Shown: positions 11,600 through 40,628 of the stretch, piece after piece | Layout: each line of letters begins with the position of its first letter | Numbering within the stretch: position 1 is the stretch's first letter | From: Hygrophila difformis | Taxonomy: Eukaryota; Streptophyta; Magnoliopsida; Lamiales; Acanthaceae | Direction of reading: 5' to 3' | Assembly (NCBI GenBank): GCA_030278955.1 | Contig: JAOANR010000010.1 | Coordinates: forward strand, 13,065,086-13,129,085 | DNA: 64,000 nt | Translations under genes and position numbers: made by a program | Notes under the pieces: model-generated | Database searches by the model: none | What the model saw: only the letters and a program-made list of their open reading frames with translations | What the model was told of the DNA's origin: nothing

Positions 11600-12047
11600 T
11601 GATTGTCCCTATGGTCTTGGCCTGACGGGCAGATAGCTGACTGTCCCTTTGGCCTGACGGGCAGATAGGTGACTGTCCCTTTGGTCTGACTGGCAGATAG
11701 GTGACTGTCCCTTTGGTCTGACGGGCAGATAGGTGACTGTCCCTTTGGCCTGACGGGCAGATAGGCGACTGCCCCCTTGGCCTGATGGGCGGATAGGTGA
11801 CTGTCCCTTTGGCCTGATGGGCGGATAGGTGACTGTCCCTTTGGTCTGATGGGCGAATAGGTGACTGTCACTTTGGCCTGATGGGCGGATAGGTGACTGT
11901 CCCTTTGGTCTGATGGGCGAATAGGTGACTGTCCCTTTGGCCTGATGGGCGGATAGGTGACTGTCCCTTTGGCCTGATGGGCGGATAGGTGACTGTCCCT
12001 TTGGCCTGACGGGTAGATAGGTGACTGTCCATTTGGTCCAACGGACA
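11600..12047. repeat. 32-bp minisatellite in U3, about 13 copies
   Basis: The unit reads TGACTGTCCCTTTGG(C/T)CTGA, then (C/T)GGGC(A/G)GATAGG, 32 bp, repeated in register with mostly single-base differences. Edge copies are the most diverged (11602, 12022). An open frame runs through it on the minus strand, but 32 is not a multiple of 3, so the reading cycles through all frames. It is not a gene. Tat-lineage elements are known to carry variable tandem repeats near the 3' LTR that can seed satellites. Confidence 0.9.
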
Positions 12048-19585: not shown

Positions 19586-21460
19586 TCATTCTGTATTTAC
19601 TTCCCAATACGATGGAAAGTATTTTTTCAAATAACGAGCATTTATGCTCTCATGCTTTTGTTTTCCATCCTTGTTAATAAGTGCATATGCACCATTTCCA
19701 AGATCAGTTTGGATGATGTAAGGTCCTTCCCAATTGGGAGACCATTTCCCCATTTCGTCGTTTTTCTTTTGTAATGGCAAAACAGTTTTCCAAACTAAAT
19801 CACCTACATGAAATGGATTGGCTCTAACCCACTTATTGTAATACCGAGCCCTTCGCTGGGCTTCTCTTTCCATATTATCAATTGCTTTTAATCGGTCAGA
19901 ACTAGTTTGTTCAAGTTCCCTCATAAGCATAGTTTCATGAACATCAGTGGGAACTATCTCCACATTCATGGTACGACTACTAGGCACTGTGACTTCCATG
20001 GGTAGTACTGCATCTTGGCCATAAGTTAGCCTATATGGAGTGAATCCCGTGGCAGTACTTTTGGTGTTTCGACAAGCCCATAAGGCCGTAGACAAATTTT
20101 CATGCCATTTCCTTGGCTTGTCTTCAATCATTTTTTTGATAATATTAATTAAGATCTTATTGGCCGATTCAGCTTGGCCATTTGCCTGGGGATAATATGG
20201 GGACGAGTGGTAAAGCTTGATTTTAAATGAGGATATGTAACTAGTGAATTGCTCCCCAACAAACACTGTCCCCCTATCGGTGGTAATGGAGTGGGGTATC
20301 CCATACCGATGGATAATATGTGAGTCGATGAAATCAATAACATCCTTTTGTGCTACTGACTTCAAGGGAATGGCCTCCACCCACTTAGTAAAATAATCTG
20401 CAGCTACGATAATAAATTTATGCCCTTTGCTGGAAGGTGGATGGATCATTCCTATGACATCGATGGCCCAAGATTTAAAGGGCCATGGTTTGATCATGTA
20501 GTTTAAATCACACACCGGGATGTGTCTAAGGCTGGCGTGCTTCTGACATGCCTCACACCCCTGGGCATACTTAATGCAGTCCTCATATATGGTAGGCCAA
20601 TAATACCCATATCGGTGGATAGTCCATCGCATGTTCAGGCCTGCCCTATGAGCTCCGCAAATGCCTTCATGAACTTCCGCCATAACTTTCCTGGCTTCTA
20701 TAGGTCCCAGGCACAGTAAAAGAACATCTTCGATTGTGCGCTTATACAAATCATCCCCCATCAGGGTAAACCTTAAAGCCTTGGCTTTAAGCTTCCTATC
20801 ATCAACCTGGGGATTTTTAAAATATGCAATTATCTCTGATCGCCAATCAGATGGCGTTGGTGCCATAGTGTCATTGTTTGGTGTCAAAGGCAGAGTTGGC
20901 CCCCCGAGTGTCGTATTAACTGATGTGTCGGATATAGGATTATCCATTCTCTCTGGGCTCCTGTTTTCCTGAGGTGCCTCATCATCAGGCATAGGATTTG
21001 TTAGCTCATGAATCTCCCCTTTGGGGCGGTACTTAGAGGCCAGCTGAGCCAGGCGATTGGCTTCTTCATTTTCGTTACGTGAAATTTGTTCAAACGTAAC
21101 ATCAGCTATTTTGGCCAATAAGTCATGAACCCGATTTTGATATCCCATCAGAATAGAGTTTTTGCAAACATAAGCCCCGAGCACTTGATTAATCACCAAC
21201 TGAGAGTCTCCTCTGATTATTACAGTTTGGACTCCTCTCATGACTAATGTCTCAAGCCCTAAGATCAGGGCTTCGTACTCAGCAGAGTTGTTAGTTATTG
21301 GTCCTAGCTCTAGGTATAACCTAATCCTTTGGCCGCCCGGGCCCTCAATGCTGACCCCTGCTCCAGCCCTAGAGCTAGTAGATGATCCGTCAAAGTGTAA
21401 GACCCATGGCAGAGTTTCTACACTCTCGATCTCGCAATCCAATTCACTATCCATACTCAC
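19586..21460 (-). CDS. pol: Pol C-terminal part: RNase H and integrase of the Tat-type element
   Basis: 624 residues to the gap edge; the polyprotein continues upstream into the N block. Residues about 18-145 are RNase H: the first Asp in VLHFDGSS, Glu in NNSAEYEALILGL, the second Asp in IIRGDSQLVI, and a C-terminal NEEANRLAQLAS. This extra, archaeal-like RNase H form is typical of Tat elements. Next come the integrase zinc-binding HHCC (HEGICGAH, CEACQKH) and the core with D (SWAIDVIG), D (TTDRGTVF) and E (NGQAESANK), all three catalytic residues present. The C-terminus ends KKYFPSYWEVNTE. The enzyme removes the RNA template and inserts the cDNA. The frame is undamaged. Confidence 0.93.
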   Translation of the reverse strand: MSMDSELDCEIESVETLPWVLHFDGSSTSSRAGAGVSIEGPGGQRIRLYLELGPITNNSAEYEALILGLETLVMRGVQTVIIRGDSQLVINQVLGAYVCKNSILMGYQNRVHDLLAKIADVTFEQISRNENEEANRLAQLASKYRPKGEIHELTNPMPDDEAPQENRSPERMDNPISDTSVNTTLGGPTLPLTPNNDTMAPTPSDWRSEIIAYFKNPQVDDRKLKAKALRFTLMGDDLYKRTIEDVLLLCLGPIEARKVMAEVHEGICGAHRAGLNMRWTIHRYGYYWPTIYEDCIKYAQGCEACQKHASLRHIPVCDLNYMIKPWPFKSWAIDVIGMIHPPSSKGHKFIIVAADYFTKWVEAIPLKSVAQKDVIDFIDSHIIHRYGIPHSITTDRGTVFVGEQFTSYISSFKIKLYHSSPYYPQANGQAESANKILINIIKKMIEDKPRKWHENLSTALWACRNTKSTATGFTPYRLTYGQDAVLPMEVTVPSSRTMNVEIVPTDVHETMLMRELEQTSSDRLKAIDNMEREAQRRARYYNKWVRANPFHVGDLVWKTVLPLQKKNDEMGKWSPNWEGPYIIQTDLGNGAYALINKDGKQKHESINARYLKKYFPSYWEVNTE

Positions 21461-21960
21461 NNNNNNNNNNNNNNNNNNNNNNNNNNNNNNNNNNNNNNNN
21501 NNNNNNNNNNNNNNNNNNNNNNNNNNNNNNNNNNNNNNNNNNNNNNNNNNNNNNNNNNNNNNNNNNNNNNNNNNNNNNNNNNNNNNNNNNNNNNNNNNNN
21601 NNNNNNNNNNNNNNNNNNNNNNNNNNNNNNNNNNNNNNNNNNNNNNNNNNNNNNNNNNNNNNNNNNNNNNNNNNNNNNNNNNNNNNNNNNNNNNNNNNNN
21701 NNNNNNNNNNNNNNNNNNNNNNNNNNNNNNNNNNNNNNNNNNNNNNNNNNNNNNNNNNNNNNNNNNNNNNNNNNNNNNNNNNNNNNNNNNNNNNNNNNNN
21801 NNNNNNNNNNNNNNNNNNNNNNNNNNNNNNNNNNNNNNNNNNNNNNNNNNNNNNNNNNNNNNNNNNNNNNNNNNNNNNNNNNNNNNNNNNNNNNNNNNNN
21901 NNNNNNNNNNNNNNNNNNNNNNNNNNNNNNNNNNNNNNNNNNNNNNNNNNNNNNNNNNNN
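21461..21960. other. Assembly gap, 500 N
   Basis: Exactly 500 N. To its left pol of the Tat-type element is cut just upstream of RNase H. To its right a different sequence begins, a repeat-bearing LTR fragment. The 5' half of the Tat element and its 5' LTR should lie here. Confidence 0.98.
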
Positions 21961-22042
21961 AATGAAGAAAGAAGATGATCGGAGGTCAAAGGATGCAAAA
22001 TTTGGAATTTTCAACACTGGAAGGCTCCAGAATGCGCCACAT
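21961..22042. repeat. Left piece of an LTR-like sequence split by the chromovirus insertion
   Basis: It ends GGCTCCAGAATGCGCCACAT, which matches the repeat unit that resumes at 31841 to the right of the inserted element. The last five bases CACAT (22038-22042) are repeated at 31836-31840 and are the target-site duplication. Confidence 0.75.
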
Positions 22043-24833
22043 TGTAACACCCCGAATTTGATAACCCAGGCCGGGATGTCACCGCCGCAATTCCCTAGTA
22101 AGACACGGCTTCCCGAGCTTGCTAAGGAAATGCAAGGCTTGTGGGTATGAAAAAGATTTAAAAACATTTCAAGATTTAGTCCGGAAATTTATAATACTTA
22201 ATACGATAGTAGAAATTATCACGTACGGAAAATAAATAAAGTAAGTGCAGCGGAAAGTAAAATCACGGCCAACATGGCCAAATCCTCGGGTTTAACAGTC
22301 CCGGTAAAAACAGTACGATGCAGAAATTTAAAATGTCCATTATGATTTCCCCCAAGTGCATATGCAGTGCGTCACTCGACGTACTCTGTAAGAAAAAGAA
22401 ATGACAACGGTTGTCAGTATAAAAATATACTGAGTAAGTTAATCCCTAACTAACAAATAAAAGGGGTTACAAGTGTTTAAACTAAAGATTTCGCTTATCG
22501 TACGAGAATTTAAAAATACATGATTTATTAGCAGCGGAAAATTATGATTAAAGAACTTAATTTAAAAAGCGTAATCTAAAGCATAATTTAAGATGCATAA
22601 AATTTAAATACGTAATTAAAGACATGATAAATACGATTTAAGCATAATGAAACACTCACACGAGTCTTTTACTGTTCATCCCGTAAACTAAGAAGAGGAC
22701 ACCATACCGGGAGATCACTAACGAGGCAATCTCAACATAGGACCACTAACGAGGCAGTCCAAACAATGGGAGACCACTAACGAGGCAGTCTCAAAGATAG
22801 TAGGACCACTAACGAGGCGATCCACAAAGATAGTAGGACCACTAACGAGGCGATCCACAAAGATAGTAGGACCACTAACGAGGCAGTCCACAAATACAGC
22901 GCGCGAGATCACTAACGAGGCAATCTCAGATAGTAAGGAGACCACTAACGAGGCAGTCTCAAAGATAATGATAGTATGAAGATCGGCTCAGCCTAGTGAA
23001 CGGGATTTTTCGAAAGTTCGTATTTCAAAGTTATCAAAAGATCGATATCGCGTTTTCATAGTTCGAGTTTTCTCAAGTTCGAAAAATCCTATTCGAGGCA
23101 GTTTACGCCTTTCTTAATTTAAAATTCGTTTTTCCTCCAAAAATTCTGAAACTTGGCCAGTAATTGAAAAACACACACACGAACAACTTTCATGTTTTAA
23201 GTTTTTGGAAATAAGGTTCCGAAGTGAGTTAAAATTTGAGTTTATTGCAAAGAATAATTTACGTCTTAAAAACTGTTTTCGTCACAGGTTCGTGTAACAC
23301 CGATTAAAAATTCATTTCAAAACCAATCGATGTGAAATTTTTACAGTAACTACACGACACATTAAGGAACAACTTTCATGTTTTAAGTTTTTGGAAATAA
23401 TGAATTCTTGGTACTCAAAAATCGTGTGCAACACACTGCATACTTATGGCCCTTAAAACGAATTCAAAACAGTTCTAAAAACTTGGCCGATTGACATATC
23501 AAATGAACACCAAAATTCGTGAAATTTTGTAGGCATAATCTAGACACAATTATCTACAACTTTTGTTTAGAAATGCAAAGTTAAATCATTCGAAAAATGG
23601 GTGTAAAACATGCATCAAGTTGAATGAAGGAATCTGTCACAGATTTGAAACGTTCGGTTTGTTACAGAAAGTTCATGGCAAAAATTGGGATAGCAAAACT
23701 TAATGTCAATGGCTGAAATTTGGACACAAGATAGATAAAGGTGTTAGGAACAACTTTTATGTTGAAAAGTTTTCGGTTTGAATTCCCGAAGGTCGAGTTT
23801 TTGGCGAGTCATTAAAATTGGACGAAAATAGGGTTTTTGAAAACCGATTTTTGTTACAAGCCTATATCTCGAGATTTAAACAACAAACAACCGCATAAAT
23901 TTGTGAGTAAGGTGTTAACTTACTTAGAATGATGTTAGGGTCGCTGGATTGGGTTTCCGGATGTCCTAGGGTCACGACGAACGGCCAACTTCTCCGATCG
24001 CTTTTTGTTCGTTTTCCGACGTGAAATCGTAGTAAGGAAATAATGTTAGAATTCGAGTTTCAGAGATCTATGGACGAATTGAAACATTGCACACTGGCTT
24101 ACCAAGAGTCTAGAGGGCAGGGCTTGGTTCCTTTTGCCTTGTCGTCGCCGGAATACTCGCCGGAAAGTGGATTCGGAGGGATTTTGGACTTGGAGAGAAA
24201 ATTGAGGGTGGAGGCTGGTATGTTTCTGAAAACTTAGGGTTTGGGACGCCCTATTACCGTCCTATAGCCTTCCCTAAGGCTGGGATTCGGTTGCCATGGT
24301 TAGGGGTATGGTTTTTGTAAGAAAATCACCATGGAAGGAAAGTTTACACTTTCAGCACCTCTGGCGCGCTGGTGGCGCGCACCTAAGCTTTTGTCCGCGC
24401 GGAGCACGCGTGCCAGGCCTGGCGTCGCGACGCCCTTGGCCGCGCGGTGGCCGCGCGGCGGCGCGCGGACAGCGCGGGCCGGCCGGACCGGCCGGTTCGG
24501 CTCCGCGTGTTCCGTCGGGTCTTTCCTTGCTTTCCCCTATCGATTTTCTACGTGTTAGCTCGATTCCTTGGGTCGTCTCTAGTCCGAAATCCTTTCCTTA
24601 ATCTCGCTACGAGTTCGGCTTATCGCTCGCAACATTTCCGTATCCTAATTGGCTTAGTCTAAATTGGTTCCAACTCCTCCTATCGTCCTTGTGATCTAAT
24701 TCGTGATTTATTTTGTGATTTATTTCGTGACTGAACTTAGAAATTAGTTCTAAGCTGCCTACGTACCCTGTGAAGGGATCAAGTCATGACGTAGTTCAAA
24801 ACAATTTGAATTTGTTTTTCCTCGGGTGTTACA
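22043..24833 (-). repeat. 3' LTR of the chromovirus derivative (2791 bp)
   Basis: Begins TGTAACACCC and ends GGGTGTTACA, perfect terminal inverted repeats. It is a near copy of 29044-31835, differing by a few substitutions and a 1-bp indel (near 24317). It contains the eight-hairpin array (22709-22960) and a very GC-rich stretch (24365-24490). Open frames inside it (for example 24043-24237, 24296-24601) have no family resemblance and I do not regard them as genes. Confidence 0.93.
22709..22960 (-). repeat. Array of eight hairpins with invariant loop, 3' LTR copy
   Basis: Eight units share the core CACTAACGAGGC(A/G). The bases on either side pair and change together: GAGAT/ATCTC (units 1, 7), GAGAC/GTCTC (3, 8) and GGAC/GTCC (2, 6); units 4 and 5 have one mismatch (GGAC/GATCC). 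Spacers of 7-18 nt (AAAGATAGTA-like) are partly repeated. In the element's RNA (minus strand) the loop reads UGCCUCGUUAGUG. By position in the LTR the array probably lies in R or U5. Confidence 0.85.
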
Positions 24834-24848
24834 TCCTCCCCCCCTTAA
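24834..24848 (-). other. Polypurine tract of the chromovirus derivative
   Basis: The minus strand reads TAAGGGGGGGAGGA directly before the LTR start TGTAACACC. It is the expected plus-strand primer and confirms the minus orientation. Confidence 0.8.
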
Positions 24849-24856
24849 GAATACAG

Positions 24857-25135
24857 TTATGTCCCCATAACTGTGGTCGGGTCGTCTTGGAAGAGGGTAG
24901 GGTAACGTTGCCTCATGTCGGCTTCCAATTCCCAGGTTGCCGTCTCCGTCTCGTGGTTGGACCACAGGACCTTGACCATCTTTACAGTTTTATTCCTTGT
25001 CACCCTTTCCTTGTGGTCGAGTATTTGCACCGGGGTTTCTTCATAGGTCAAGTCATCATCCAATTCGATTACGTCCGGTTGGAGTACATGCGATGTGTCG
25101 GGCAAATACTTCTTTAGTTGGGGGTCGTGGAACAC
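24857..25135 (-). pseudogene. Remnant of chromovirus pol: integrase tail and chromodomain
   Basis: About 92 residues reading FHDPQLKKYLPD..HVLQPDVIEL, LTYEETPVQILD, RNKTVKMVKVLWSNHETETA, then TWELEADMRQRYPTLF. This is the end of a Tekay-like chromovirus polyprotein: the last integrase segment and a chromodomain (Val-Lys-Val-Leu-Trp and Thr-Trp-Glu core). Chromodomains direct integration toward marked heterochromatin. The similarity stops abruptly near 25135-25140, where a small deletion also disturbs the frame, so this is the right-hand edge of the internal deletion. As it lacks any catalytic part it is not functional alone. Confidence 0.85.
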
Positions 25136-25139
25136 ATTG

Positions 25140-26221
25140 TGGTCACGAGCAAACGGTGGTGGGGTCGTTAGTTAACATGCCGCTCTCATTTCCCTACGGA
25201 ATTTCTTAGGGTCCCTAGGTATTTACGTCCCGGGGGTTTCCCGTAGTCCTGCGAAAGGAGGGCGTGAGGCAATTCCGCCGTCCTTGCCCGGAATAATGCC
25301 AGGCGATGCTCCATGTCGACGTATTTCTCTGTCAATGTATGCCCGGGTTCAGTGAGGAGCGTAGAGCGAAAGAGATCGAGCAGAACAGGAAAGATAAAAC
25401 TCCACCCGGGTCCCGCGCGGTGGCCGCGCGTTGGCGCGCGGGGAGCGCGCGGCAACCCCTGTTCGAAAAAAATAGGGCTCGCGCTCCGCGCGAGCCACTT
25501 CCCCCATTTCTCATCCGAGAACACACCCCCAATTCTCTCTAAATCCGGCGAGTTACCTTCCTTTTTGCTCGATTTCGACTTCAATTTCACTCATCCAGGT
25601 ACGATTCTACTAAACCCACTTCCTAATTTCAACTTTTATGTTTTGAATGATTCGATTTGTGAAGAGATTTAGGAAATTAGGGTTTGTGTACAAAAATTGG
25701 GGGTTTATGATTTTTAGGCTGGATTTGTGCAATTTAGCAAGTGTATGTGGCAATTGTTGTTACTCTTGTTGCCTTGCCTATGTTTATGTTATAATGTGTT
25801 TATGTTTTTGGCAATTTCTTGTTGAATTCGAATCCTTAGAAAGGCTTATGAAGTTACTGGTGCTGGGTTGCTGTTGGGGTGTGATTATTGGTTTGTTCCC
25901 TCGTTGTTTAGTGCTGTAGGATTTGCCGTATTGTTATTAGAATGATTGTTTCGTTCTGTGGGCGATTTCCGTGTGTTGTTAGTAACTTAGGTTTTGGTTT
26001 ATTGTGCACATGACGTGTTCGACGAAATGCCACATAGGGTTTAGGCACTAGTTTTAGCATATTCTTGTCTAGGTCACCTCCTGGTTGGTCTTAGTAAACG
26101 GTAGGATTTGTTGTTCTTACGGTACATTCACGTTGGAACTATATATTAATGCCCTATTCGTATTTTCTCTTGACTTCTGTGTGGGACTTAGCCTTATAAT
26201 TGGTGTTTGGTAACTTGCAGG
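25140..26221 (+). promoter_or_regulatory. Promoter/leader region of the antisense gene, with a likely 5'-UTR intron
   Basis: No convincing coding sequence. A GC-rich block (25410-25460) shares an 18-base string (CCGCGCGGTGGCCGCGCG) with the LTR near 24440. It is followed by a pyrimidine-rich leader (25500-25598) ending TCATCCAG|GTACGA, a donor with GT at 25599. The acceptor AACTTGCAG lies at 26212-26220, just before the ATG at 26222. The intron would be about 620 bp. The arrangement mirrors the PMD gene in the Tat element. Confidence 0.5.
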
Positions 26222-27556
26222 ATGTTGCTCTTTTTGTGGGTCGTTTTGGCGTCTCTCATGTGTCCTCCGAGGACTAGGAGACGGGTTGCTGACGAGGCTG
26301 GCCCCAGTCATGCTGCTCCGGCGATGCCGGATTTCGACGAGAGCGAGTCAGAGGAGGATGAGGCGCAGAGGGGCCCGCGTCTCAGGGGCCTCCCGGACGA
26401 GGTGCGTCCTCACCGGCATGATAGGTTCCGGTTTAGGACGAGGGCTGCCCAGGACTTTTATTTCGACGAGCTTCGTCGAAACAGGTCTTACGTCCCTGAG
26501 AGAGGCATATATCCTCTTCATATGGGCGATGACAGGGTCAGTGCGGTCTTGGAGTATTTACAGTGGACTGGTCTGGCACGTCACCCCGAGGGCGTCGCCT
26601 CCGGTTATTTGGCTCTGGAGGTTATTGCCAACATCGGCGGTCTCGGGGAGGGTGACGATCTATCCCGAGTATGGGTCCGTGGTCGCTATCTCGACTTCAG
26701 TGCTCGGGCGATCAACGTCTATTTTGGCTTGCCCGACGATGGCGTTTTCCGGCCCCAGCCTGAGGGGCGCGTTCTTGCTCCTGCGTGGAACACCTTATGC
26801 ACCCTAGTGCCTCCTGCGTTCGAGCACAGTCATGAGCTTCGTTTGACGTCGATGGACTCCCCTTGGCGAGAGCTCGCTCAGCTATGGTTCGGGCGTGTCC
26901 GGCCGATGTCCCGGAGCCACATTGTCTTGGACCACGTCTACGAGACCATTTGCTTCATCGCGCGGGACGGTAGGGTGAATGTAGGGGCTTGCATCGAGGA
27001 CAACTTGCGGGGTATGCGCAGAGGACGAGGGAGTAGGGTGATTACCCATGTTCACCTCATCTGTGGGTTGTGCGCGGCACAGGGGATTCGCACTACACCG
27101 GAGACAGATCCGTACGACCTAGCACCTGGCCGTTGCTACCGTATTCCGTCTTATGCTGAGCGGCGTAGCGCCTTACGTCGTGGGGCTCCACGTGCTGTAC
27201 TTCGCCCGCAGCCTGATGACGGCGGCCTGATCCTCGTTGTACCACCGGAGCAGCCACCCCCTCCTCCAGTGGTTCCACCTCCTGCTGGGGCACCTCCTGC
27301 CGTGGCACCTCAGGGGCAGGAGATGATTCAGATGCTGCAGATGATGCAGGAGATGCGGGTCGGTATGGATGCCGGGTTTGCAGCCGGGCAGGCTCGTTAT
27401 GACGCCCTCGACGCTAGGTTGGACCTCTATCAGACCCGCATGGACTCGTTTGCTACGAGGCAGGCTCAGCAGCAGGCCACCATGTCCGACATGTACGCCT
27501 ATGTGCGGCAGATGGATGACTTCATGCGCCGACAGTTCCCGCCTCCCGATCAGTGA
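26222..27556 (+). CDS. Putative plant transposon protein domain gene, antisense in the chromovirus derivative
   Basis: 444 residues from the ATG at 26222; an alternative start at 26258 (MCPPRTRRR) is equally plausible, since the first 12 residues are only a short hydrophobic run. After an acidic stretch come YVPERGIY, VRGRYLDFSARAINVYFGLP, PWRELAQLWFGRVRPMSRSH, FIARDGRVNVGACIEDN and VITHVHLICGLCAAQGI. This order (fold region, V.GR.vdFS..aIN..fGLPD, rP.SH..., vdVG..I, lIt.LC...G) is the putative plant transposon protein domain also found in Athila-type ORF1 and many plant TE proteins. The C-terminus is Pro-rich, then Met/Gln coiled coil with MDD, ending PPPDQ. The frame is intact and GC-rich compared with the LTR's AT-rich parts. 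It opposes the element's own transcript. Molecular role unknown. Confidence 0.75.
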   Translation: MLLFLWVVLASLMCPPRTRRRVADEAGPSHAAPAMPDFDESESEEDEAQRGPRLRGLPDEVRPHRHDRFRFRTRAAQDFYFDELRRNRSYVPERGIYPLHMGDDRVSAVLEYLQWTGLARHPEGVASGYLALEVIANIGGLGEGDDLSRVWVRGRYLDFSARAINVYFGLPDDGVFRPQPEGRVLAPAWNTLCTLVPPAFEHSHELRLTSMDSPWRELAQLWFGRVRPMSRSHIVLDHVYETICFIARDGRVNVGACIEDNLRGMRRGRGSRVITHVHLICGLCAAQGIRTTPETDPYDLAPGRCYRIPSYAERRSALRRGAPRAVLRPQPDDGGLILVVPPEQPPPPPVVPPPAGAPPAVAPQGQEMIQMLQMMQEMRVGMDAGFAAGQARYDALDARLDLYQTRMDSFATRQAQQQATMSDMYAYVRQMDDFMRRQFPPPDQ

Positions 27557-28126
27557 TGTCTCCCTTTGGTTTCGTGTTTTCGTTTAGGTTTTGCGTTTAG
27601 ACGTACTTTGTTTAGGCTCCTCCTTATGAGGACGTTGATGTTGCCTGGTGTTTGGGATTTATATTTTCGTTATGTTGTTGCTTAGTTAGGTGCTTGACAT
27701 GTGTTAGTTGTTTGCTGTTGTTTAGAACCATGGTTTAATTGTTCTGTCCATTTTATGGTTTGAGATGTTCTGGATTTACTGTTACCTTCCTATCGTATCT
27801 ACATGTGTGTGGGTTGCCCAACAGTACTTACACTGTTGCTTGACTAAACCGCTTCAAGGAACTTAGATAAACTAGTGTGATTAAGATGTAAGGGGTAGAG
27901 TTTATATGTTAAATAAATAGCTGCTTGCAAGGGGAAAATTTTATTGAATGAAGGTTAGTCTTTTAATAGGTATCAATTTATTGGGGTTTTCTTGTAAAGG
28001 TTGCTGGAATTTATTTATTTATATGTACGTATTTTATTATCTTTATTATTATTATTTCCATTGTTATTTTTATATTTTTTTATTTTCATTTATTATTATT
28101 ATTATTATTATATTTTTGTTTTTATG

Positions 28127-28159
<33 letters not shown>

Positions 28160-28328
28160 TATTTTTTTTTTTTTTTTGTAGGTTTCCCTCCTTGATTATG
28201 GTAGTTAAAGAACTAAATGAAATAAATTTAAATAGGCTTGTATTTTATTACTCAAGAATTTTGGTTTACAAGCATTCGAAATAGAAATAGCAATGGTGCA
28301 TCAGTATGGATCCCTAAATCTAGGGTGA
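27557..28328. other. 3' region of the antisense gene and AT-rich spacer
   Basis: T- and G-rich 3'-UTR-like sequence to about 27800, then AT-rich DNA with a long run of ATT trinucleotides and T homopolymer (28030-28180). No coding frame is seen. The trinucleotide run is a simple repeat likely to vary in length. Confidence 0.55.
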
Positions 28329-28706
28329 CTAGGCAGGTATATCCTCGATGGGATCGTCCTCGTCACTGGATATGTCAATGGGAATGGGCGTCCCCACCGG
28401 GCTCGGGCTCGGAGGGAAGATGTCGGCCTCTAGGCCCAGTAGCTCAGCTGCTAAGTGTCCTATTTGCATCATCAGTTCGTTATCCTTGTTTTGGAGCGCC
28501 ACCACTAGTGTTTGGAGTTCGGCGACTTGGGCCTTGAGTTGGGTTATTTCGTGATGGTCAGCTTCCCTAAGATTTCTCAGATAGTCCACGTTACTCTCTA
28601 GATGCCCCACTCGAGCTTTGAAGTGATTGACATGCTGTTGGGACTCGAGGTATGCATTGGTCAGTTTCATCATCAGGTTGGTCATGTTCGCGTTCGGTTC
28701 GGCCAT
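28329..28706 (-). CDS. Small coiled-coil protein in sense orientation near the 5' LTR
   Basis: 125 residues, MAEPNANMTNLMMKL..., starting about 320 bp downstream of the primer-binding site, the place where gag normally begins. Nearly the whole first 95 residues form a heptad-rich coiled coil (HFKARVGHLESNVDYL, QLKAQVAELQTLVVAL). It is followed by a PSPSPVGTP stretch and an acidic tail (DISSDEDDPIEDIPA). No zinc knuckle or capsid homology is seen, so I do not call it gag. It could be a remnant of a leader ORF or an oligomerising helper protein; it is the only sense ORF kept intact in the element. No closer identification is possible from sequence. Confidence 0.5.
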   Translation of the reverse strand: MAEPNANMTNLMMKLTNAYLESQQHVNHFKARVGHLESNVDYLRNLREADHHEITQLKAQVAELQTLVVALQNKDNELMMQIGHLAAELLGLEADIFPPSPSPVGTPIPIDISSDEDDPIEDIPA

Positions 28707-29029
28707 CTATTGTCAACAAGGGAGGTTAGAGTTAGATGTTTTTCAGGCAAAGTTAAGATATGCATAATTTAATTCTATATGCAACATGCAAGTGCAAGTC
28801 CCTTCCCCCATAAAATTTTAGTTTAAAATAAATTGCTAAGGGTTGGGCCTCTATAGTGGGCCAAAATTTAATATTTCTTGGGCTAAGATTTGGGCTATGT
28901 AAAAAGGATTATAGATTTTTGGGCTAAAAATAGTACTAGTAGTCAAATAAATAAATTTTAGAAGAAATATTACTTGGGCTTAAAAATATTGGTTTAAAAT
29001 AATAGTAGTAGCTTTAAAAATTTTCCGGT

Positions 29030-29040
29030 CTCTGATACCA
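29030..29040 (-). other. Primer-binding site (initiator tRNA-Met type)
   Basis: The minus strand reads TGGTATCAGAG three bases after the LTR end, the standard complement of the 3' end of plant initiator tRNA-Met used by chromoviruses and many other LTR elements. It identifies 29044-31835 as the 5' LTR. Confidence 0.9.
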
Positions 29041-29043
29041 ACT

Positions 29044-31835
29044 TGTAACACCCCGAATTTGATAACCCAGGCCGGGATGTCACCGCCGCAATTCCCTAGT
29101 AAGACACGGCTTCCCGAGCTTGCTAAGGAAATGCAAGGCTTGTGGGTATGAAAAAGATTTAAAAACATTTCAAGATTTAGTCCGGAAATTTATAATACTT
29201 AATACGATAGTAGAAATTATCACGTACGGAAAATAAATAAAGTAAGTGCAGCGGAAAGTAAAATCACGGCCAACATGGCCAAATCCTCGGGTTTAACAGT
29301 CCCGGTAAAAACAGTACGATGCAGAAATTTAAAATGTCCATTATGATTTCCCCCAAGTGCATATGCAGTGCGTCACTCGACGTACTCTGTAAGAAAAAGA
29401 AATGACAACGGTTGTCAGTATAAAAATATACTGAGTAAGTTAATCCCTAACTAACAAATAAAAGGGGTTACAAGTGTTTAAACTAAAGATTTCGCTTATC
29501 GTACGAGAATTTAAAAATACATGATTTATTAGCAGCGGAAAATTATGATTAAAGAACTTAATTTAAAAAGCGTAATCTAAAGCATAATTTAAGATGCATA
29601 AAATTTAAATACGTAATTAAAGACATGATAAATACGATTTAAGCATAATGAAACACTCACACGAGTCTTTTACTGTTCATCCCGTAAACTAAGAAGAGGA
29701 CACCATACCGGGAGATCACTAACGAGGCAATCTCAACATAGGACCACTAACGAGGCAGTCCAAACAATGGGAGACCACTAACGAGGCAGTCTCAAAGATA
29801 GTAGGACCACTAACGAGGCGATCCACAAAGATAGTAGGACCACTAACGAGGCGATCCACAAAGATAGTAGGACCACTAACGAGGCAGTCCACAAATACAG
29901 CGCGCGAGATCACTAACGAGGCAATCTCAGATAGTAAGGAGACCACTAACGAGGCAGTCTCAAAGATAATGATAGTATGAAGATCGGCTCAGCCTAGTGA
30001 ACGGGATTTTTCGAAAGTTCGTATTTCAAAGTTATCAAAAGATCGATATCGCGTTTTCATAGTTCGAGTTTTCTCAAGTTCGAAAAATCCTATTCGAGGC
30101 AGTTTACGCCTTTCTTAATTTAAAATTCGTTTTTCCTCCAAAAATTCTGAAACTTGGCCAGTAATTCAAAAACACACACACGAACAACTTTCATGTTTTA
30201 AGTTTTTGGAAATAAGGTTCCGAAGTGAGTTAAAATTTGAGTTTATTGCAAAGAATAATTTACGTCTTAAAAACTGTTTTCGTCACAGGTTCGTGTAACA
30301 CCGATTAAAAATTCATTTCAAAACCAATCGATGTGAAATTTTTACAGTAACTACACGACACATTAAGGAACAACTTTCATGTTTTAAGTTTTTGGAAATA
30401 ATGAATTCTTGGTACTCAAAAATCGTGTGCAACACACTGCATACTTATGGCCCTTAAAACGAATTCAAAACAGTTCTAAAAACTTGGCCGATTGACATAT
30501 CAAATGAACACCAAAATTCGTGAAATTTTGTAGGCATAATCTAGACACAATTATCTACAACTTTTGTTTAGAAATGCAAAGTTAAATCATTCGAAAAATG
30601 GGTGTAAAACATGCATCAAGTTGAATGAAGGAATCTGTCACAGATTTGAAACGTTCGGTTTGTTACAGAAAGTTCATGGCGAAAATTGGGATAGCAAAAC
30701 TTAATGTCAATGGCTGAAATTTGGACACAAGATAGATAAAGGTGTTAGGAACAACTTTTATGTTGAAAAGTTTTCGGTTTGAATTCCCGAAGGTCGAGTT
30801 TTTGGCGAGTCTTTAAAATTGGACGAAAATAGGGTTTTTGAAAACCGATTTTTGTTACAAGCCTATATCTCGAGATTTAAACAACAAACAACCGCATAAA
30901 TTTGTGAATAAGGTGTTAACTTACTTAGAATGATGTTAGGGTCGCTGGATTGGGTTTCCGGATGTCCTAGGGTCACGACGAACGGCCAACTTCTCCGATC
31001 GCTTTTTGTTCGTTTTCCGACGTGAAATCGTAGTAAGGAAATAATGTTAGAATTCGAGTTTCAGAGATCTATGGACGAATTGAAACATTGCACACTGGCT
31101 TACCAAGAGTCTAGAGGGCAGGGCTTGGTTCCTTTTGCCTTGTCGTCGCCGGAATACTCGCCGGAAAGTGGATTCGGAGGGATTTTGGACTTGGAGAGAA
31201 AATTGAGGGTGGAGGCTGGTATGTTTCTGAAAACTTAGGGTTTGGGACGCCCTATTACCGTCCTATAGCCTTCCCTAAGGCTGGGATTCGGTTGCCATGG
31301 TTAGGGGTATGGTTTTTGGCAAGAAAATCACCATGGAAGGAAAGTTTACACTTTCAGCACCTCTGGCGCGCTGGTGGCGCGCACCTAAGCTTTTGTCCGC
31401 GCGGAGCACGCGTGCCAGGCCTGGCGTCGCGACGCCCTTGGCCGCGCGGTGGCCGCGCGGCGGCGCGCGGACAGCGCGGGCCGGCCGGACCGGCCGGTTC
31501 GGCTCCGCGTGTTCCGTCGGGTCTTTCCTTGCTTTCCCCTATCGATTTTCTACGTGTTAGCTCGATTCCTTGGGTCGTCTCTAGTCCGAAATCCTTTCCT
31601 TAATCTCGCTACGAGTTCGGCTTATCGCTCGCAACATTTCCGTATCCTAATTGGCTTAGTCTAAATTGGTTCCAACTCCTCCTATCGTCCTTGTGATCTA
31701 ATTCGTGATTTATTTTGTGATTTATTTCGTGACTGAACTTAGAAATTAGTTCTAAGCTGCCTACGTACCCTGTGAAGGGATCAAGTCATGACGTAGTTCA
31801 AAACAATTTGAATTTGTTTTTCCTCGGGTGTTACA
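29044..31835 (-). repeat. 5' LTR of the chromovirus derivative (2792 bp)
   Basis: TGTAACACCC to GGGTGTTACA, nearly identical to the 3' LTR. Differences noticed: near 30167, 30680, 30813, 30907 and 31318. It is followed by the target duplication CACAT (31836-31840). On the minus strand its U3 end is at 31835. The GC-rich block (31365-31490) lies early in the LTR and the hairpin array (29710-29961) in its last third. Confidence 0.93.
29710..29961 (-). repeat. Array of eight hairpins with invariant loop, 5' LTR copy
   Basis: Identical in all units to the copy at 22709-22960. If transcription starts in mid-LTR, this copy would lie in the 5' leader of the genomic RNA and the other in its 3' end, places where retroelement RNAs keep packaging, dimerisation or regulatory structures. 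That location is inference; no start site is mapped. Confidence 0.8.
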
Positions 31836-31840
31836 CACAT

Positions 31841-32166
31841 AGGCATGGCGGCGCATAAAAATGCTCTCCAGCGCCACTTTATGCGCCACCTCAACACTTG
31901 GGAAAATTTCGGATGGAAAAAGCTTCAGGATGCGCCACAATAGCTTGGTGGCGCCTAAAACTGCTCCGGAGCGCCACAAAATGCGCCGCAGGGTAAAATT
32001 TGGGAAATTGTCAGAATGCACCGCACCTTCTTGGTGGCGCATAATAGTGCCCTTCTGCGCCATTTTTTGCGCCACTTTCAAAAATTCGGAAAATCTTCGT
32101 ATGCGCCGCATCTCCTTGGTGGCGCCGAAAACCTCTTCCGAGCGCCACTTTTTGCGCCGCAGTCGC
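31841..32166. repeat. Tandem repeat of about 85 bp with GTGGCGC/GCGCCAC palindromes
   Basis: Nearly four diverged units (the first is split, its start being 22015-22042 left of the inserted element). Each has AATT(T/C)GGA..., ATGCGCC(A/G)C, GGTGGCGC, about 16 nt, GCGCCAC, a T- or A-rich run, then TGCGCC(A/G)C. GTGGCGC and GCGCCAC are reverse complements, so each unit can fold into a 7-bp stem. The spacing is regular and the palindromic parts are better kept than the rest. Confidence 0.75.
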
Positions 32167-35270: not shown

Positions 35271-35794
35271 ATGGGGGCGACCTTGAGGAAAATCGTGTCG
35301 CGAGAGAAGATATTGGCTGGGATACGGCGGGCGATGTCGGAGGAGGGCGGCTACGTGGCGGGGTGAGGGAAAAGTGAAGGAGATTCCGAGGAAGAGCCTA
35401 GAGGCGCTGGAGGGTGGGGATCTGTTATAATTTCGAGGTTTTAAATCTGCAATTTGTCATTGAAATCTTGAAATTGCTACTTTAATTTTTACAATCTTGT
35501 GAAAAGCAGACTTGGAAGGGTGTGTGAAGAAGATAAGTGTGTTGAAAGATGATGTAGTGTGTGGGTAGCGGATTGCAGTTTCAATGTTCTCTAGTCCTGC
35601 CATTGTCGAGGAAGATGATGAAAGGGTGATTGGCGGGTAAAATTATTAGTAATTGATACTCAACCTATTTCATGTTTATACTTTCAGTGTAGTGCTTGTT
35701 TCCAGGCCACACCTTAATACTTGGCTTAAACTTAAAGCAATCGTGGTCTGTCTTCTGTCCGACTATTTAGCTTTTGAAGATATTATGGGATATA
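35271..35794 (+). pseudogene. Unrecognised gene, first exons, cut by the copia insertion
   Basis: An ATG at 35271 opens a GC-rich 31-codon frame (MGATLRKIVSREKILAGIRR...) with a possible donor (GGG|GTGAGG) just before its stop at 35364. Later pieces look exon-like: 35495-35560 (LEGCVKKISVLKDDVV) after an AG, and a frame reading MFSSPAIVEEDDERVIGG near 35586-35640 between AG and GT signals. I do not recognise the family. The last 375 bp are repeated beyond the copia element, where further exon-like segments follow. Exon calls rest on splice-like signals alone and may be wrong. Confidence 0.4.
35421..35794. repeat. Left copy of a ~375-bp direct duplication flanking the copia element
   Basis: Runs from TCTGTTATAATTTCGAGG to GATATTATGGGATATA and matches 42248-42622 with about four base differences. 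It ends within one or two bases of the left LTR start, and its partner begins at the base after the right LTR end. Confidence 0.85.
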
Positions 35795-35795
35795 A

Positions 35796-36323
35796 TGCCA
35801 GGAAATTAGTGAATCCCAGTTTCTACACAGATAATTTAAGAACTACGCAATGATTTACTTACCTGCGTCCATTGCTTGTTAAACCTCTTGATTCTGTTCT
35901 CAATAATGGATTTTTCCTCTCATTGGCCTTCCCTTCAACGCTCCTTGATGATTAGGAGACCTTTCTTTACTGCAGTGTTCACCGTACTCTTTCTTTCCTT
36001 TCTGCGTATTTTCTTTTCTATTCTGGTGTGTTAAAGAGCCGTTCTCACACCCATATAAATGCAGATACTATATCCTAAGAATAGGGAGAGTGGGCGTAGT
36101 GGTGTAAACCACTTTCTCATAACTGCTCCTTAAACACCGCTATTTTTGAATGTATTTGACTACATTCTGCTTAATAATAACGGTACAATATTTTATGGGC
36201 CAGGATTGGGGAGTTAATTTCCAAACTCCAATTTGGGCTATTTAATCCACACCCTATCATCAAAGGTGGGCTTTAATGCCAAAATCAATTTAATTATTTA
36301 AATGTGAGCCAATTATTCCAACA
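35796..36323 (-). repeat. 3' LTR of the copia element
   Basis: 528 bp. Both this copy and the other are preceded by ATATAA on the plus strand, so the exact outer limit is uncertain by up to six bases. It includes GGGCC and GGGCT motifs near its inner end. Confidence 0.85.
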
Positions 36324-36670
36324 TTCTCCCACTTTGGCTCACTTGATGAATATTGAAGGTATGATAAATTTAAGTGTACACAATGTAATATCAACATTCA
36401 ATCAATCCATACTTAAATTAAAATGGGTTGGATCATGGCGGTTGCACACCATTTACTTCGACATGATTCCTTCCATGTACCACAAGCCACTTTAACTTAA
36501 TACCATTAATATTGAGGTCAACATATAAGCCCCAACCTTTCAGGAAGATTTAATAAATATTTCATGGTGCAACAATAATAGCTTTGTAAGCAAAACGTAA
36601 ATATACTTAAGCTCAGAGTGTCATAGCGTACAAGAGCAACATGAATTTAATATATGAAATAATGCATAAT

Positions 36671-39600
36671 CTAAGTTAACAAGGATTTATCCATGACACC
36701 CATCCGTTCGACATGTCCCATAAAGGTTTTGGGTGGCAATCCTTTAGTTAACGGATCAGCTACCATTAAGGTGGTGCTAATATGCTCAATTGACACTCTA
36801 CGTTTTTGCACCTCATCTTTGACTGCCAAGTACTTCACTTCTAAATGTTTAGCACCTTTTGAGTACTTGTCATTCTTTGAAAAGAAGACAGCTGCAGAGT
36901 TGTCACAATAAATAGTCAGCGGCTTGGATATACTGTCGACAATCCCAAGCCCTGAAATAAAGTTCCGCAGCCACAATCCTTGAACAGTGGCTTCAAAGCA
37001 TGCCATGAATTCAGCTTCCATGGTGGATGCAGCTGTAATTGACTCTTTTCCAGACTTCCACGATATAGCTGCTCCAGCCAACATAAACACATAGCCAAAT
37101 GTAGACTTTCTCGTATCTACACATCCGGCAAAATCTGAATCTGAGTAGCCTATCAATTCAAGATGATCAGCCCTCCTATACATGAGCATCCGATCCTTGG
37201 TGCCTTGTAAGTACCTAAGGACTTTCTTTGCAGCTTTCCAGTGGTCCATACCGGGATTAGTTTGATACCGACCCAACATACCAACAGCAAAGCTGATATC
37301 TAGCCGAGTACAAGTTTGAGCATACATCAAACTTCCCACCACTGAAGCATACGGAATCTTTTCCATTTCCTTTCGTTCCAAATCATTTCCAGGACATTGC
37401 ATTTGACTAAATTTGTCCCCTTTTTGAATTGGAACTATCCCAGCAGAGCACTTGTCCATGCGGAATTTCTCTAGAACTTTATTAATATAGGCCTTTTGAG
37501 ACAAACCTAACAATCCTTGTGATCTATTCTGGAATATATCAATTCCTATCACATAGGATGCCTCACCCATATCTTTCATTTCAAAGTTCTTTGAGAGAAA
37601 ATCCTTCACCTCATGCAACATTCCGACATTGTTAGCAGCTAGTAGAATGTCATCAACATACATGACTAATATTACAAACTTGCTCCCACTAACCTTCATA
37701 TAGATACACCGATCAACGGTGTTTTCTATAAAACCATAGGATATAATAGTGCTATTAAACTTCAAATACCACTGTCTGGAAGCTTGTTTTAGCCCATATA
37801 TCGACTTCTTTAGTTTACACACCAAATTTTCTTTTCCTGCAGCCTTAAATCCTTCTGGCTGATCCATGTACACTTCCTCTTCCAAATCTCCATTTAGAAA
37901 AGCAGTTTTAACATCCATTTGGTGAAGCTCTAAATCATAATGAGCCACCAAAGCCAAAACAATTCTTAAAGAGTCTTTCTTTGATACCGGAGAGAAAGTC
38001 TCTTTGTAATCAATGCCATCTTTCTGAGTATAACCTTTGGCAACGAGTCTGGCTTTATATCGTTCGATGTTGCCTTTTGAGTCACGTTTGATCTTAAAGA
38101 TCCATCTACAACCGACTCGTTTAGACCCTTCAGGAAACTCTACTAAATCCCAAACACCATTGTCATCCATCGATTTTAACTCTTCTTTCATAGCATTGAT
38201 CCATTTTCCAGAATCATTACTATTCACTGCTTGACCAAATGTGATTGGCTCTTCATCAATGCTTTGCTCCGCTTCATGCTGAATATTATATACCACATAC
38301 TCATCCGAAATAGCTGGCCTTCTTTCCCTTACAGAACGCCTCAAAATTATTTCAGGTTGTGGTTCTTCAGCCTGTATTGGTTCATTGTCTGTTATTTCAT
38401 TCAATGGGATTTGATTATTGTCGTGTTGCTCATGTACTCTCTGTGAAGGAGGTACGACTACAGGAACAATAACTTTATCAGAAACATCAACTGAAGGTAC
38501 ATCAGCTTGAATTTCTGAAATATTAACCTTTCGTGGTTCCCCACTCCCACTGATCAAACCATTCTCAATGAACTTGGCATTGATTGTTTCAACTATTCTT
38601 GTACTGTGGTTAGGACAATAAAACCTATATCCTTTTGACCTTTCAGGATAGCCAATGAAGTAACCACTGACTGTCCTTGCATCAAGTTTCTTTTCATGTG
38701 GATTGTACACTCTTACTTCAGCTGGGCAACACCAAACATGGAGATGCCTTAAACTTGGTTTTCTGCCTGTCCACAGTTCATAAGGAGTCTTAGGAACTGC
38801 CTTTGAAGGAACCCGATTTAAAAGATATGCTGCTGTTTTCAGTGCATACATCCATAAGGATAAAGGTAAAGAGCAATTGCTCAACATGCTCCTAACCATG
38901 TCCATTAAGGTACGATTTCTTCTCTCAGCAACTCCATTCTGCTGAGGCGTACCAGGCATTGTATATTGCGCACAAATGCCTCTACTTTTCAGGAAGTTTG
39001 CAAATGGACCAGGACATTGTCCACTTTCATCATATTTTCCATAATACTCACCACCTCGATTAGATCTCACTATTTTCACTTTTCTATTTAATTGCCTTTC
39101 CACCTCATTAATGAACACCTCTAAGACATTCACTGATTGAGACTTTTCATGCAACATATAGATATAAGCATATCGAGAGTAATCATCTATAAAGGTGATT
39201 AAGTATTTTTCTCCACCCCAATTAGGAATGTCAAATGGACCACAAATATCAGTGTGTATAATTTCAAGAAGTTGATCACTTCGAGTGGCAACTTTCTTAA
39301 GTGTGGCTTTAGTTTGCTTTCCTTTAATGCAATCAACACACACACTCCAGTCACTAAAATCCAACTGAGGTAGTATTTCACTTTTCACCAACCTCAATAA
39401 CCTTTCTTTGGAAATGTGACCCAAACGTTGATGCCACAAAAAAGCAGAACATTCATTCAGTGCACTACGTTTGATCCCACAATTATTTTCAATATAAAAC
39501 AAGGATTCAGAAAATTTATTATCAAGATTGAAGCAATAAAGCCCATCTTGAATAAAACCCCTGCCATACAAAACATTGTTCAAAAACATTGAAAACCGTC

Positions 39601-39778
39601 CACAGGAAAATTCAAATTTAAAACCAACTCCATCCAACTTTCCTAGAGATACAAGATTTCTAGCACATTCAGGAACATAAAGACATTGATCCAAGTCAAC
39701 ATGATGACCAGTGTCAAGAACTAAGCGGTATGTCCCGATGCCCTCTATTCGTGCTTTCATCCTGTTCCCCATGAACAA
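36671..39778 (-). pseudogene. pol: Copia pol: integrase, reverse transcriptase, RNase H; protease part missing
   Basis: 1035 residues, uninterrupted. Order: GAG-pre-integrase zinc part (HQRLGHIS...CVDCIKGK, about 115-152), integrase core (about 165-330), a linker, reverse transcriptase (about 530-775; MDVKTAFLNGDLEEEVYMDQ, YVDD in VMYVDDILL), and RNase H (about 860-1000; YSDSDFAGCVDTRKST, TMEAEF, YCDNSAA). The first integrase Asp (HTDICGPF, residue 177) and the Glu (NGVAERRNR, 285) are present, but the second Asp position is Asn (RSNRGGEYY, 240), so strand transfer should be dead. The frame starts at MGNRMKARIEG, downstream of where the protease DSG motif belongs; that part is deleted. RT and RNase H look functional. 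Confidence 0.9.
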
Positions 39779-39785
39779 ATACTGT

Positions 39786-40628
39786 TCAGTTCCTCTTATG
39801 GGCTGGATCGTAAGGAATCCCTTTCTTCTCGAACCAAGCCTTTCTCTTTGGACAATCTTTCTTTACATGTCCATTCTTTCTGCAGAAGAAGCAAGTCACT
39901 TTCTTTTCAACTTGGCCTCCAGCAACTTTCATAGGGGGCTTGCCTCTTTTCTTGCCTTTCTTTACTTGGTGTACCTTGCTGCTACTAGCACCATCATATG
40001 CAGTAAGATGGATGGAGTGGTCCCGAATTTTCTTCAGTCTCCCCTCTTCCTGAACAAGCATGGCCTTAATTTCCTTCAGGTTCCATTTATCTTTTATGGT
40101 GTTATAGTTCACCTGGAACTGGCCAAACTCAGCAGGAAGAGAGTTCATAATAAACTGAACAAGGAACGATTCACTCACATCCATCCCCATTGCCTTAAGC
40201 CTTGCTGCCAGATTTGACATTTCTGTCACATGATCATGGATTGGCTTAGACCAATCAAATTTCTTTGTGGTTAGCTCATTCATAAGCGTCCCCACAATAG
40301 ATTTGTCTGCTAGGTCAGACTGGGAAAACTCCTTGATTTTCGGGATGAACTCTTTAGCATTCTCTGTTTTGGGCATGGATGGCTTGATATTTTCTGCCAT
40401 AGACATCCTCATCAGAATCAAGCTCAGCCTGTTTGACCTTTCCCAAGCATCATAAAGGGATCTGTCACTTTCAGTGCTTGAGTCTGTGATAGCAGCAGGC
40501 TGTTCATCAGACACAATGGCTAGATCCAAATCCATTATGCCAAGTGTGAACTGAATCTGCTCATGCCATTCCACAAAATTCAGCCCATTGAATTTCACAA
40601 AAGCATTTCCCGAAGCCAAAAGGTTCAC
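39786..40628 (-). CDS. gag: Copia gag with CCHC zinc knuckle
   Basis: 280 residues: an N-terminal region (FVKFNGLNFVEWHEQIQFTL), the UBN2/Retrotran-gag helical domain (about 60-190; LSLILMRMSMAENI, HVTEMSNLAARLKAMGMDVS, FIMNSLPAEFGQF, then NLKEIKAMLVQEEGRL), a Lys-rich linker, and a zinc knuckle CFFCRKNGHVKKDC (CX2CX4HX4C). It ends GIPYDPAHKRN and a stop, where intact relatives continue into protease. The pol frame begins only a few bases downstream in another frame, so the break is a deletion. Gag itself looks complete and could form particles. Confidence 0.85.
   Translation of the reverse strand: MNLLASGNAFVKFNGLNFVEWHEQIQFTLGIMDLDLAIVSDEQPAAITDSSTESDRSLYDAWERSNRLSLILMRMSMAENIKPSMPKTENAKEFIPKIKEFSQSDLADKSIVGTLMNELTTKKFDWSKPIHDHVTEMSNLAARLKAMGMDVSESFLVQFIMNSLPAEFGQFQVNYNTIKDKWNLKEIKAMLVQEEGRLKKIRDHSIHLTAYDGASSSKVHQVKKGKKRGKPPMKVAGGQVEKKVTCFFCRKNGHVKKDCPKRKAWFEKKGIPYDPAHKRN

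What the first reader, a model, noticed from the sequence alone, without database searches (positions are those of the whole stretch)
22709..22960. Eight-hairpin array with invariant loop and covarying stems, kept identical in both LTRs
Seen: eight units share CACTAACGAGGC(A/G) as loop. The flanks change together: GAGAT/ATCTC, GAGAC/GTCTC, GGAC/GTCC. The T:A to C:G exchange and the AG/CT to G/C exchange are compensatory; two units carry one mismatch. A simple minisatellite would drift without keeping pairing. Position in the last third of the LTR suggests it is in the transcribed leader and 3' end, so an RNA element (packaging, dimerisation, translation control or multivalent protein binding) is possible. 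I know of no described plant LTR with such an array.
Basis: partly seen in the sequence, partly recalled or inferred. Interest (0 to 1): 0.78.

Follow-up and report, generated by a model that had tools for sequence, protein, structure and literature searches.

The report
Eight RNA-hairpin repeats in a retrotransposon LTR
A young plant retrotransposon carries in each long terminal repeat a row of eight short hairpins with the same seven-letter loop, whose stems change mostly in ways that keep them paired on the strand that becomes RNA; it looks like a docking array for an RNA-binding protein, but no other copies could be examined here.

Summary
The array is real: 8 of 8 units at 22711-22960, and an identical copy at 29710-29961. 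The element is on the MINUS strand. Read on plus, every unit loses 2 or 3 pairs. Two pairs change on both sides, one is kept through wobble, and the outermost is lost in the four GGAY units. Swapping 3' arms among units reaches the observed pairing in 96 of 40,320 permutations. Spacers average 55% identity; the 12-nt core is invariant. Identity between the LTRs is no evidence, since reverse transcription copies one from the other. Best reading: a structure-constrained, multivalent RNA-protein binding array in the RNA of a non-autonomous Tekay-like chromovirus, for packaging or handling of unspliced RNA. The binder and the transcript ends are unknown. About three events inside one array, 3 of 8 hairpins under 0.5 pairing probability, and no other family copies (genome search did not complete) keep confidence moderate.

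The parts
22043..24833 (-). 3' LTR (2791 bp) holding the array
   Evidence: 99.8% identical to the other LTR; TGTAACACCC...GGGGTGTTACA; TSD ATGTG outside
29044..31835 (-). 5' LTR (2792 bp) holding the second, identical array
22711..22733 (-). hairpin u1 GAGAUUGC[CUCGUUA]GUGAUCUC, 8 bp
22740..22760 (-). hairpin u2 GGACUGC[CUCGUUA]GUGGUCC, 7 bp
22770..22792 (-). hairpin u3 GAGACUGC[CUCGUUA]GUGGUCUC, 8 bp
22803..22823 (-). hairpin u4 GGAUCGC[CUCGUUA]GUGGUCC, 7 bp
22836..22856 (-). hairpin u5 GGAUCGC[CUCGUUA]GUGGUCC, 7 bp
22869..22889 (-). hairpin u6 GGACUGC[CUCGUUA]GUGGUCC, 7 bp
22904..22928 (-). hairpin u7 UGAGAUUGC[CUCGUUA]GUGAUCUCG, 9 bp
22938..22960 (-). hairpin u8 GAGACUGC[CUCGUUA]GUGGUCUC, 8 bp (first in the transcript)
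29710..29961 (-). second copy of the array, in the 5' LTR, identical over 252 nt
29030..29040 (-). primer binding site TGGTATCAGAG (initiator tRNA-Met type, label recalled)
   Evidence: three bases after the 5' LTR
24834..24846 (-). polypurine tract AAGGGGGGGAGGA before the 3' LTR
24857..25135 (-). C-terminal pol remnant with chromodomain-like match
   Evidence: PF00385 E=5.7e-5, 23.4 bits, just under the cut-off of 25.1; relatives named from Chenopodium quinoa and Beta vulgaris among others
28329..28706 (-). 125-aa coiled-coil-like ORF where gag would start
   Evidence: no Pfam family above cut-off; 'coiled-coil-like' is from reading the sequence
29387..29418 (-). candidate splice branch point CTGAC and acceptor TTTCTTTTTCTTACAG (LTR position 2418-2449)
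   Evidence: branch point from the script, acceptor read by eye in the sequence it printed; consensus match only

Best explanation
The array is a cis-acting RNA element of a non-autonomous Tekay-like chromovirus. On the genomic RNA (minus strand), eight hairpins present the same 7-nt loop, CUCGUUA, on stems held by pairing more than by sequence. Eight copies give avidity to one loop- and stem-reading protein. Shown: anatomy, strand, pairing, compensated changes, invariant core. Inferred: transcription through the array, that the hairpins fold in the cell, and that a protein binds. The use I think most likely is selection of the unspliced genomic RNA, by Gag supplied in trans or by a host export or splicing factor, because the array lies between candidate splice donors (LTR 733, 912) and a candidate acceptor with a long pyrimidine tract (LTR 2449).
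For: 8 of 8 units pair fully on minus; read on plus, every unit loses 2 or 3 of its pairs. Of 8 stem pairs over 7 distinct rows, 2 carry changes on both sides (A-U/G-C and C-G/U-A), 1 varies on one side and stays paired (U·G/C-G), 4 never vary, 1 is lost in 3 rows; 94.6% of 56 cells are paired on minus against 69.6% on plus. 3' arm permutations: 96 of 40,320 reach the observed pairing. Sliding the partner by 1-3 columns drops pairing to 32-55%. Core 12 columns invariant, 7 spacers 55% identical on average. Fold z -2.59 minus, -0.45 plus. In a scan of both strands of the window for four or more hairpins with the same loop within 400 nt (stem 6 or more, loop 4-9; first cluster per loop printed), only AT repeats, the 32-bp array at 11617-12036 and this array came up; the 32-bp array has 8 of 11 with one unchanging 3' arm. 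The element is recent (6 LTR difference positions). No reverse transcriptase match among the 9 of 9 ORFs of 80 aa or more that overlap the internal region, nor in 12 of 13 minus-strand stop-to-stop frames of 60 aa or more.
Against: Only about three independent stem events, all in one array. The outermost pair is lost in 4 of 8 units (the GGAY class). Covariation beyond shuffles is seen on plus too, so only completeness of pairing, not covariation, singles out minus. With pairing span up to 60 nt the mean pair probability is under 0.5 for 3 of 8 hairpins (0.01, 0.25, 0.41), since arms of neighbouring units can pair with each other. Each hairpin alone is only modestly stable (9 to 47 of 1000 shuffles as good). 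The transcript start, end and splicing are not mapped. No other copies, no RNA data and no known partner.
Confidence: 0.5

Rival explanations
1. Neutral minisatellite: one imperfect palindrome was multiplied by slippage or unequal exchange; the pairing is inherited and the few changes kept it by luck or by conversion among units.
For: Tandem arrays are common in this window (44 rows). Units 4 and 5 are identical. Only about three stem events. Two random substitutions in the 16 arm positions keep all 8 pairs in 6.7% of draws, and two random deletions keep pairing in 13 of 120.
Against: Placing eight substitutions on three branches at random over the 23-nt hairpin kept pairing this well in 2.3% of 200,000 draws, and pairing plus an untouched loop in 0.005%. 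The core is invariant while spacers are 55% identical.
Confidence: 0.28
2. DNA-level element: an array of binding sites for a DNA-binding protein (enhancer or silencer) with core CACTAACGAGGC in the LTR promoter region.
For: The invariant 12-mer with drifting spacers and 28-37 bp spacing is also what a multi-site enhancer looks like. Some TATA-like sites lie downstream of the array in the LTR (2406, 2414, 2642), which would put it upstream of the promoter.
Against: It does not predict paired changes in the arms, nor that the odd changes are wobble pairs on one strand only.
Confidence: 0.14
3. Single-stranded DNA or cruciform hairpins that matter in reverse transcription or recombination.
For: Hairpins would form on cDNA too; the plus strand keeps the outer 5-bp stem in 88.6% of 35 cells, with the same two double-changed pairs.
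Against: The plus strand (first cDNA strand) pairs worse over all 8 pairs: 69.6% against 94.6%.
Confidence: 0.08

Closest known systems
Ty1 TIPIRT leader RNA (kissing loops and pseudoknot)
   Same: LTR-retrotransposon RNA whose hairpins with 7-nt apical motifs are proposed to start dimerisation and packaging, tested in a helper-mobilised mini element (PMC5454406, abstract and passages seen)
   Different: Ty1 has two hairpins with mutually complementary apical motifs; here are eight with one and the same loop, not self-complementary. One complement UAACGAG exists elsewhere in the element and is not clearly an open loop.
Retroviral packaging hairpins (MLV, MMTV, FIV psi), HIV TAR in R
   Same: Structured 5' leader RNA with exposed loops, read by Gag or other proteins (recalled; MMTV and FIV papers seen only as listings with abstract starts)
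   Different: Not eight copies of one hairpin (recalled); no sequence likeness tested.
Plant retrozymes
   Same: Non-autonomous plant LTR elements with a functional RNA structure (PMC4918200, listing only; its place in the LTR is recalled)
   Different: Theirs is a hammerhead ribozyme; no Rfam family matched the array at E up to 1.
Bongo (Tekay clade) chromoviruses of Beta vulgaris
   Same: 5 of 6 listed LTR lengths are 2561-3000 bp, PBS to tRNA methionine, chromodomain (PMC3605345, passages seen)
   Different: Those carry gag-pol; the terms 'hairpin', 'palindrom' and 'stem' do not occur in that text.

Membership tests
LTR retrotransposon | Paired LTRs TG..CA, TSD, PBS, PPT | tested here: met
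Tekay-clade chromovirus | Chromodomain behind integrase | tested here: inconclusive
   Chromo 23.4 bits against a cut-off of 25.1; 6 of 26 relatives carry the precomputed Chromo domain; no integrase seen in the scanned frames
Tekay-clade chromovirus | Reverse transcriptase placed in the Tekay clade | not testable with these tools
   no reverse transcriptase match in the frames scanned by Pfam
Tekay-clade chromovirus | Long LTR of about 2.5-3 kb and tRNA-Met PBS | tested here: met
   2792 bp, TGGTATCAGAG; Bongo LTR lengths. Not diagnostic on its own.
Retroviral or retrotransposon packaging signal | Hairpins in the transcribed leader, needed for packaging and bound by Gag | not testable with these tools
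   structure supported; transcript ends and binding not testable
Retrozyme | Hammerhead ribozyme in the LTR | tested here: not met
   The only Rfam match at E up to 1 in 22000-32000 is MIAT_exon5_3 (E 0.73, far below its gathering score) at 26254-26447
Kissing-loop dimerisation element | Self-complementary or mutually complementary loops | tested here: inconclusive
   CUCGUUA is not self-complementary (sequence). One exact complement UAACGAG in the element, about 0.6 expected by my own estimate from length; it is partly paired in a local fold.

The most novel reading that the evidence does not exclude
A plant retrotransposon RNA carries an eightfold 'docking array' whose loop, CU-CGU-UA, is anticodon-like (7 nt, U in the U33 place, CGU as in tRNA-Thr; resemblance recalled, not tested). 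It would recruit a host tRNA-binding protein or trans-acting Gag cooperatively, marking unspliced RNA for packaging: a natural counterpart of the MS2-type hairpin arrays used in the laboratory.
Probability: 0.08. Interest if true: 0.85.

Novelty: new variant of a known kind. Interest (0 to 1): 0.5.

Why it matters
How plant LTR retrotransposon RNA is selected for packaging, and how elements without gag-pol hijack helpers, is poorly known (my own knowledge of the field). A compact, repeated hairpin with an invariant loop gives a bait sequence for finding the protein, and a motif by which to search plant genomes for sister arrays.

Tried and rejected
Plus-strand hairpins with a 13-nt loop: replaced by minus-strand hairpins with a 7-nt loop. 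Identity of the two LTR arrays as evidence of selection: rejected, it follows from reverse transcription. The L001 hit (Dehalococcoidia MAG): a GC-rich bacterial repeat in which I see the 12-mer without these stems; taken as unrelated. IMG/VR scans with three patterns: 0 hits. Rfam on 22000-32000: nothing relevant. Predicted proteins that would read through a sister array, sought in both orientations: 1232 and 510 candidates, none at E up to 10; the stop-to-stop frames of 89 aa (minus) and 85 aa (plus) have methionine only near their ends and are taken as non-coding. Kissing partner: one heptamer, not more than I expect by chance. Related copies of the element elsewhere in the window: none at E up to 0.01 by blastn. 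Literature: ten searches listed no paper whose title or abstract start describes such an array; two searches returned no papers, and where more papers matched than were listed only the top was seen (in one search, 20 of 47 papers, none of those 20 with either 12-mer). Only open PMC text is covered. TSS or splicing data for Tekay-type LTRs: term searches inside PMC11728184 and PMC4535378 gave no occurrence, and in PMC3059260 only two in the reference list.

Full report
What is there. The core CACTAACGAGGC occurs exactly eight times at 22716-22954 and eight times at 29717-29955. Tandem Repeats Finder sees the same array with unit about 33 or 66 bp. The two stretches belong to direct repeats 22042-24833 and 29043-31835, 99.8% identical.

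Orientation. The element lies on the minus strand. Read there, the LTRs run TGTAACACCC...GGGGTGTTACA (31835-29044, 2792 bp; 24833-22043, 2791 bp), flanked by ATGTG on both sides. AGT-TGGTATCAGAG follows the 5' LTR and AAGGGGGGGAGGA precedes the 3' LTR. A pol tail with a sub-threshold chromodomain match lies at 24857-25135 on minus. Of its 26 listed relatives 12 are named from Chenopodium, Beta or Amaranthus, 7 from Cuscuta, Ipomoea or Cannabis, and 7 have no name. None of the 9 ORFs of 80 aa or more that overlap the internal region matches reverse transcriptase, protease or integrase in Pfam, nor do 12 of the 13 minus-strand stop-to-stop frames of 60 aa or more (24759-24989 was not scanned). 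So the element looks non-autonomous; shorter fragments were not tested. The LTRs differ at 6 listed positions, one of them a gap, so the insertion is recent.

The hairpin. On minus each unit reads GAGAY or GGAY, then YGC, loop CUCGUUA, GUG, then the complementary arm. Stem lengths are 8, 7, 8, 7, 7, 7, 9 and 8 bp for u1 to u8, all fully paired counting G·U; read on plus the same units lose 2 pairs each, and u7 loses 3.

Is the pairing kept by constraint? In the alignment of 8 units (7 distinct rows), 94.6% of 56 cells pair on minus and 69.6% on plus. Two pairs change on both sides (A-U to G-C; C-G to U-A), one varies on one side and stays paired (U·G to C-G), 4 never vary, and the outermost is lost in 3 of 7 distinct rows. 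In the tool's shuffles on minus, 1 of 500 reached the observed paired cells, 1 of 500 the double-changed cells and 1 of 500 the covariation score; but the count of pairs with double changes was reached by 308 of 500, and of pair types by 499 of 500, so those two measures give no support. The same analysis on plus gives 0, 3 and 3 of 500 for the first three, so the covariation itself does not tell the strands apart; the completeness of pairing does. Over all 40,320 assignments of 3' arms to 5' arms, 96 reach the observed pairing. Related units are not independent, so these are not probabilities. A random placement of eight substitutions on three branches keeps pairing as well in 2.3% of draws and also leaves the loop untouched in 0.005%. 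The 7 spacers are on average 55% identical, the 12-nt core 100% over 8 units.

Results against. With pairs limited to 60 nt, mean pair probabilities in transcript order (u8 to u1) are 0.79, 0.85, 0.56, 0.01, 0.41, 0.93, 0.91 and 0.25: 5 of 8 hairpins dominate and 3 do not. The 3' arm of one unit can also pair with the 5' arm of the next (runs of 8, 3, 7, 7, 6, 7, 6 pairs for the 7 neighbours). The whole-array fold is only moderately better than shuffles (z -2.59, 2 of 200 shuffles as good), and mixes local and long-range pairing. Taken singly, 9 to 47 of 1000 shuffles of each hairpin fold as well. I estimate three stem-changing events in all.

Controls. A scan of both strands of the window for at least four hairpins with one loop within 400 nt returned AT repeats, the 32-bp array and this array. 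Seven tandem arrays that I picked, this one included, were then scanned alike, the two commonest loops per strand being printed. The 32-bp array at 11617-12036 forms 6-bp hairpins at 8 of 11 occurrences of its loop with one constant 3' arm; a few loops with 1 to 3 occurrences in other arrays are all paired, with a single stem sequence each.

Where in the transcript. In transcript direction the array is at LTR position 1875-2124. TATA-like sites lie at 569, 969, 2406, 2414 and 2642; the one at 569 is followed by AAACCCTAA and a pyrimidine-rich stretch. Donor-like sites are at 733, 912, 1392 and 2176; the script listed acceptor-like sites at 725, 2147, 2385, 2389 and 2713, while the acceptor at 2449 (TTTCTTTTTCTTACAG, 28 nt after the A of a CTGAC) was read by eye from the printed sequence, and branch points were sought only in 2381-2460. 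AATAAA occurs at 110, 122, 1589 and 2306. If transcription starts near 600, the array is in the leader and, before splicing, perhaps inside an intron; if it starts downstream of 2406, the array is in U3, upstream of the promoter and in the 3' end of the RNA. This was not resolved.

How it most likely works. A protein that reads the CUCGUUA loop on a short stem binds up to eight times. Since the element must be mobilised in trans, packaging by a helper's Gag is an attractive use; control of export or splicing of the unspliced RNA is another. Both are inference. Ty1 gives a precedent for hairpins in LTR-retrotransposon RNA that act in mobilisation of a helper-driven mini element (PMC5454406, abstract and passages), though by kissing loops, for which there is little support here.

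Novelty. I found no description of such an array in the searches named in Tried and rejected. The kind of thing (a structured cis-acting RNA region in an LTR element) is known; eight copies of one invariant-loop hairpin is, to my knowledge, an unreported variant. No other family copy was available, and the in-genome search stayed unanswered on all 13 tries, so the decisive comparison is left to others.

Noticed in passing
30184-30758 (LTR positions 1078-1652): Four copies of AAAGTTGT (two within ACATGAAAGTTGTTC-like modules, one ACATAAAAGTTGTTC-like, one AAAAGTTGTAGAT), spaced 194, 187 and 186 nt, upstream of the hairpin array in transcript direction.
   Followed up: partly
26207-27556 (+): A 449-aa ORF with a Transposase_32 (PF20167, putative plant transposon protein) match runs antisense inside the retrotransposon.
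   Followed up: partly
29403-29433 (-): Two palindromes, CAGTATA-TTTT-TATACTG and TGACAACCGTTGTCA, sit directly before a candidate splice acceptor in the LTR (sequence printed).
   Followed up: no
28329-28706 (-): A 125-aa coiled-coil-like ORF starts where gag would be, without a Pfam family above cut-off.
   Followed up: no
11617-12036: A 13-copy 32-bp tandem array, with incidental 6-bp hairpins at 8 of 11 loop occurrences.
   Followed up: partly
19586-21460 (-): A neighbouring pol remnant with RNase H-like, integrase zinc-binding and integrase core domains, next to a run of N at 21461-21960.
   Followed up: partly
35420-42621: Other long direct repeats: 35420-35794 with 42247-42621, 99.2% identical, and 35790-36324 with 41714-42248, 98.9% identical, their order exchanged.
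   Followed up: no
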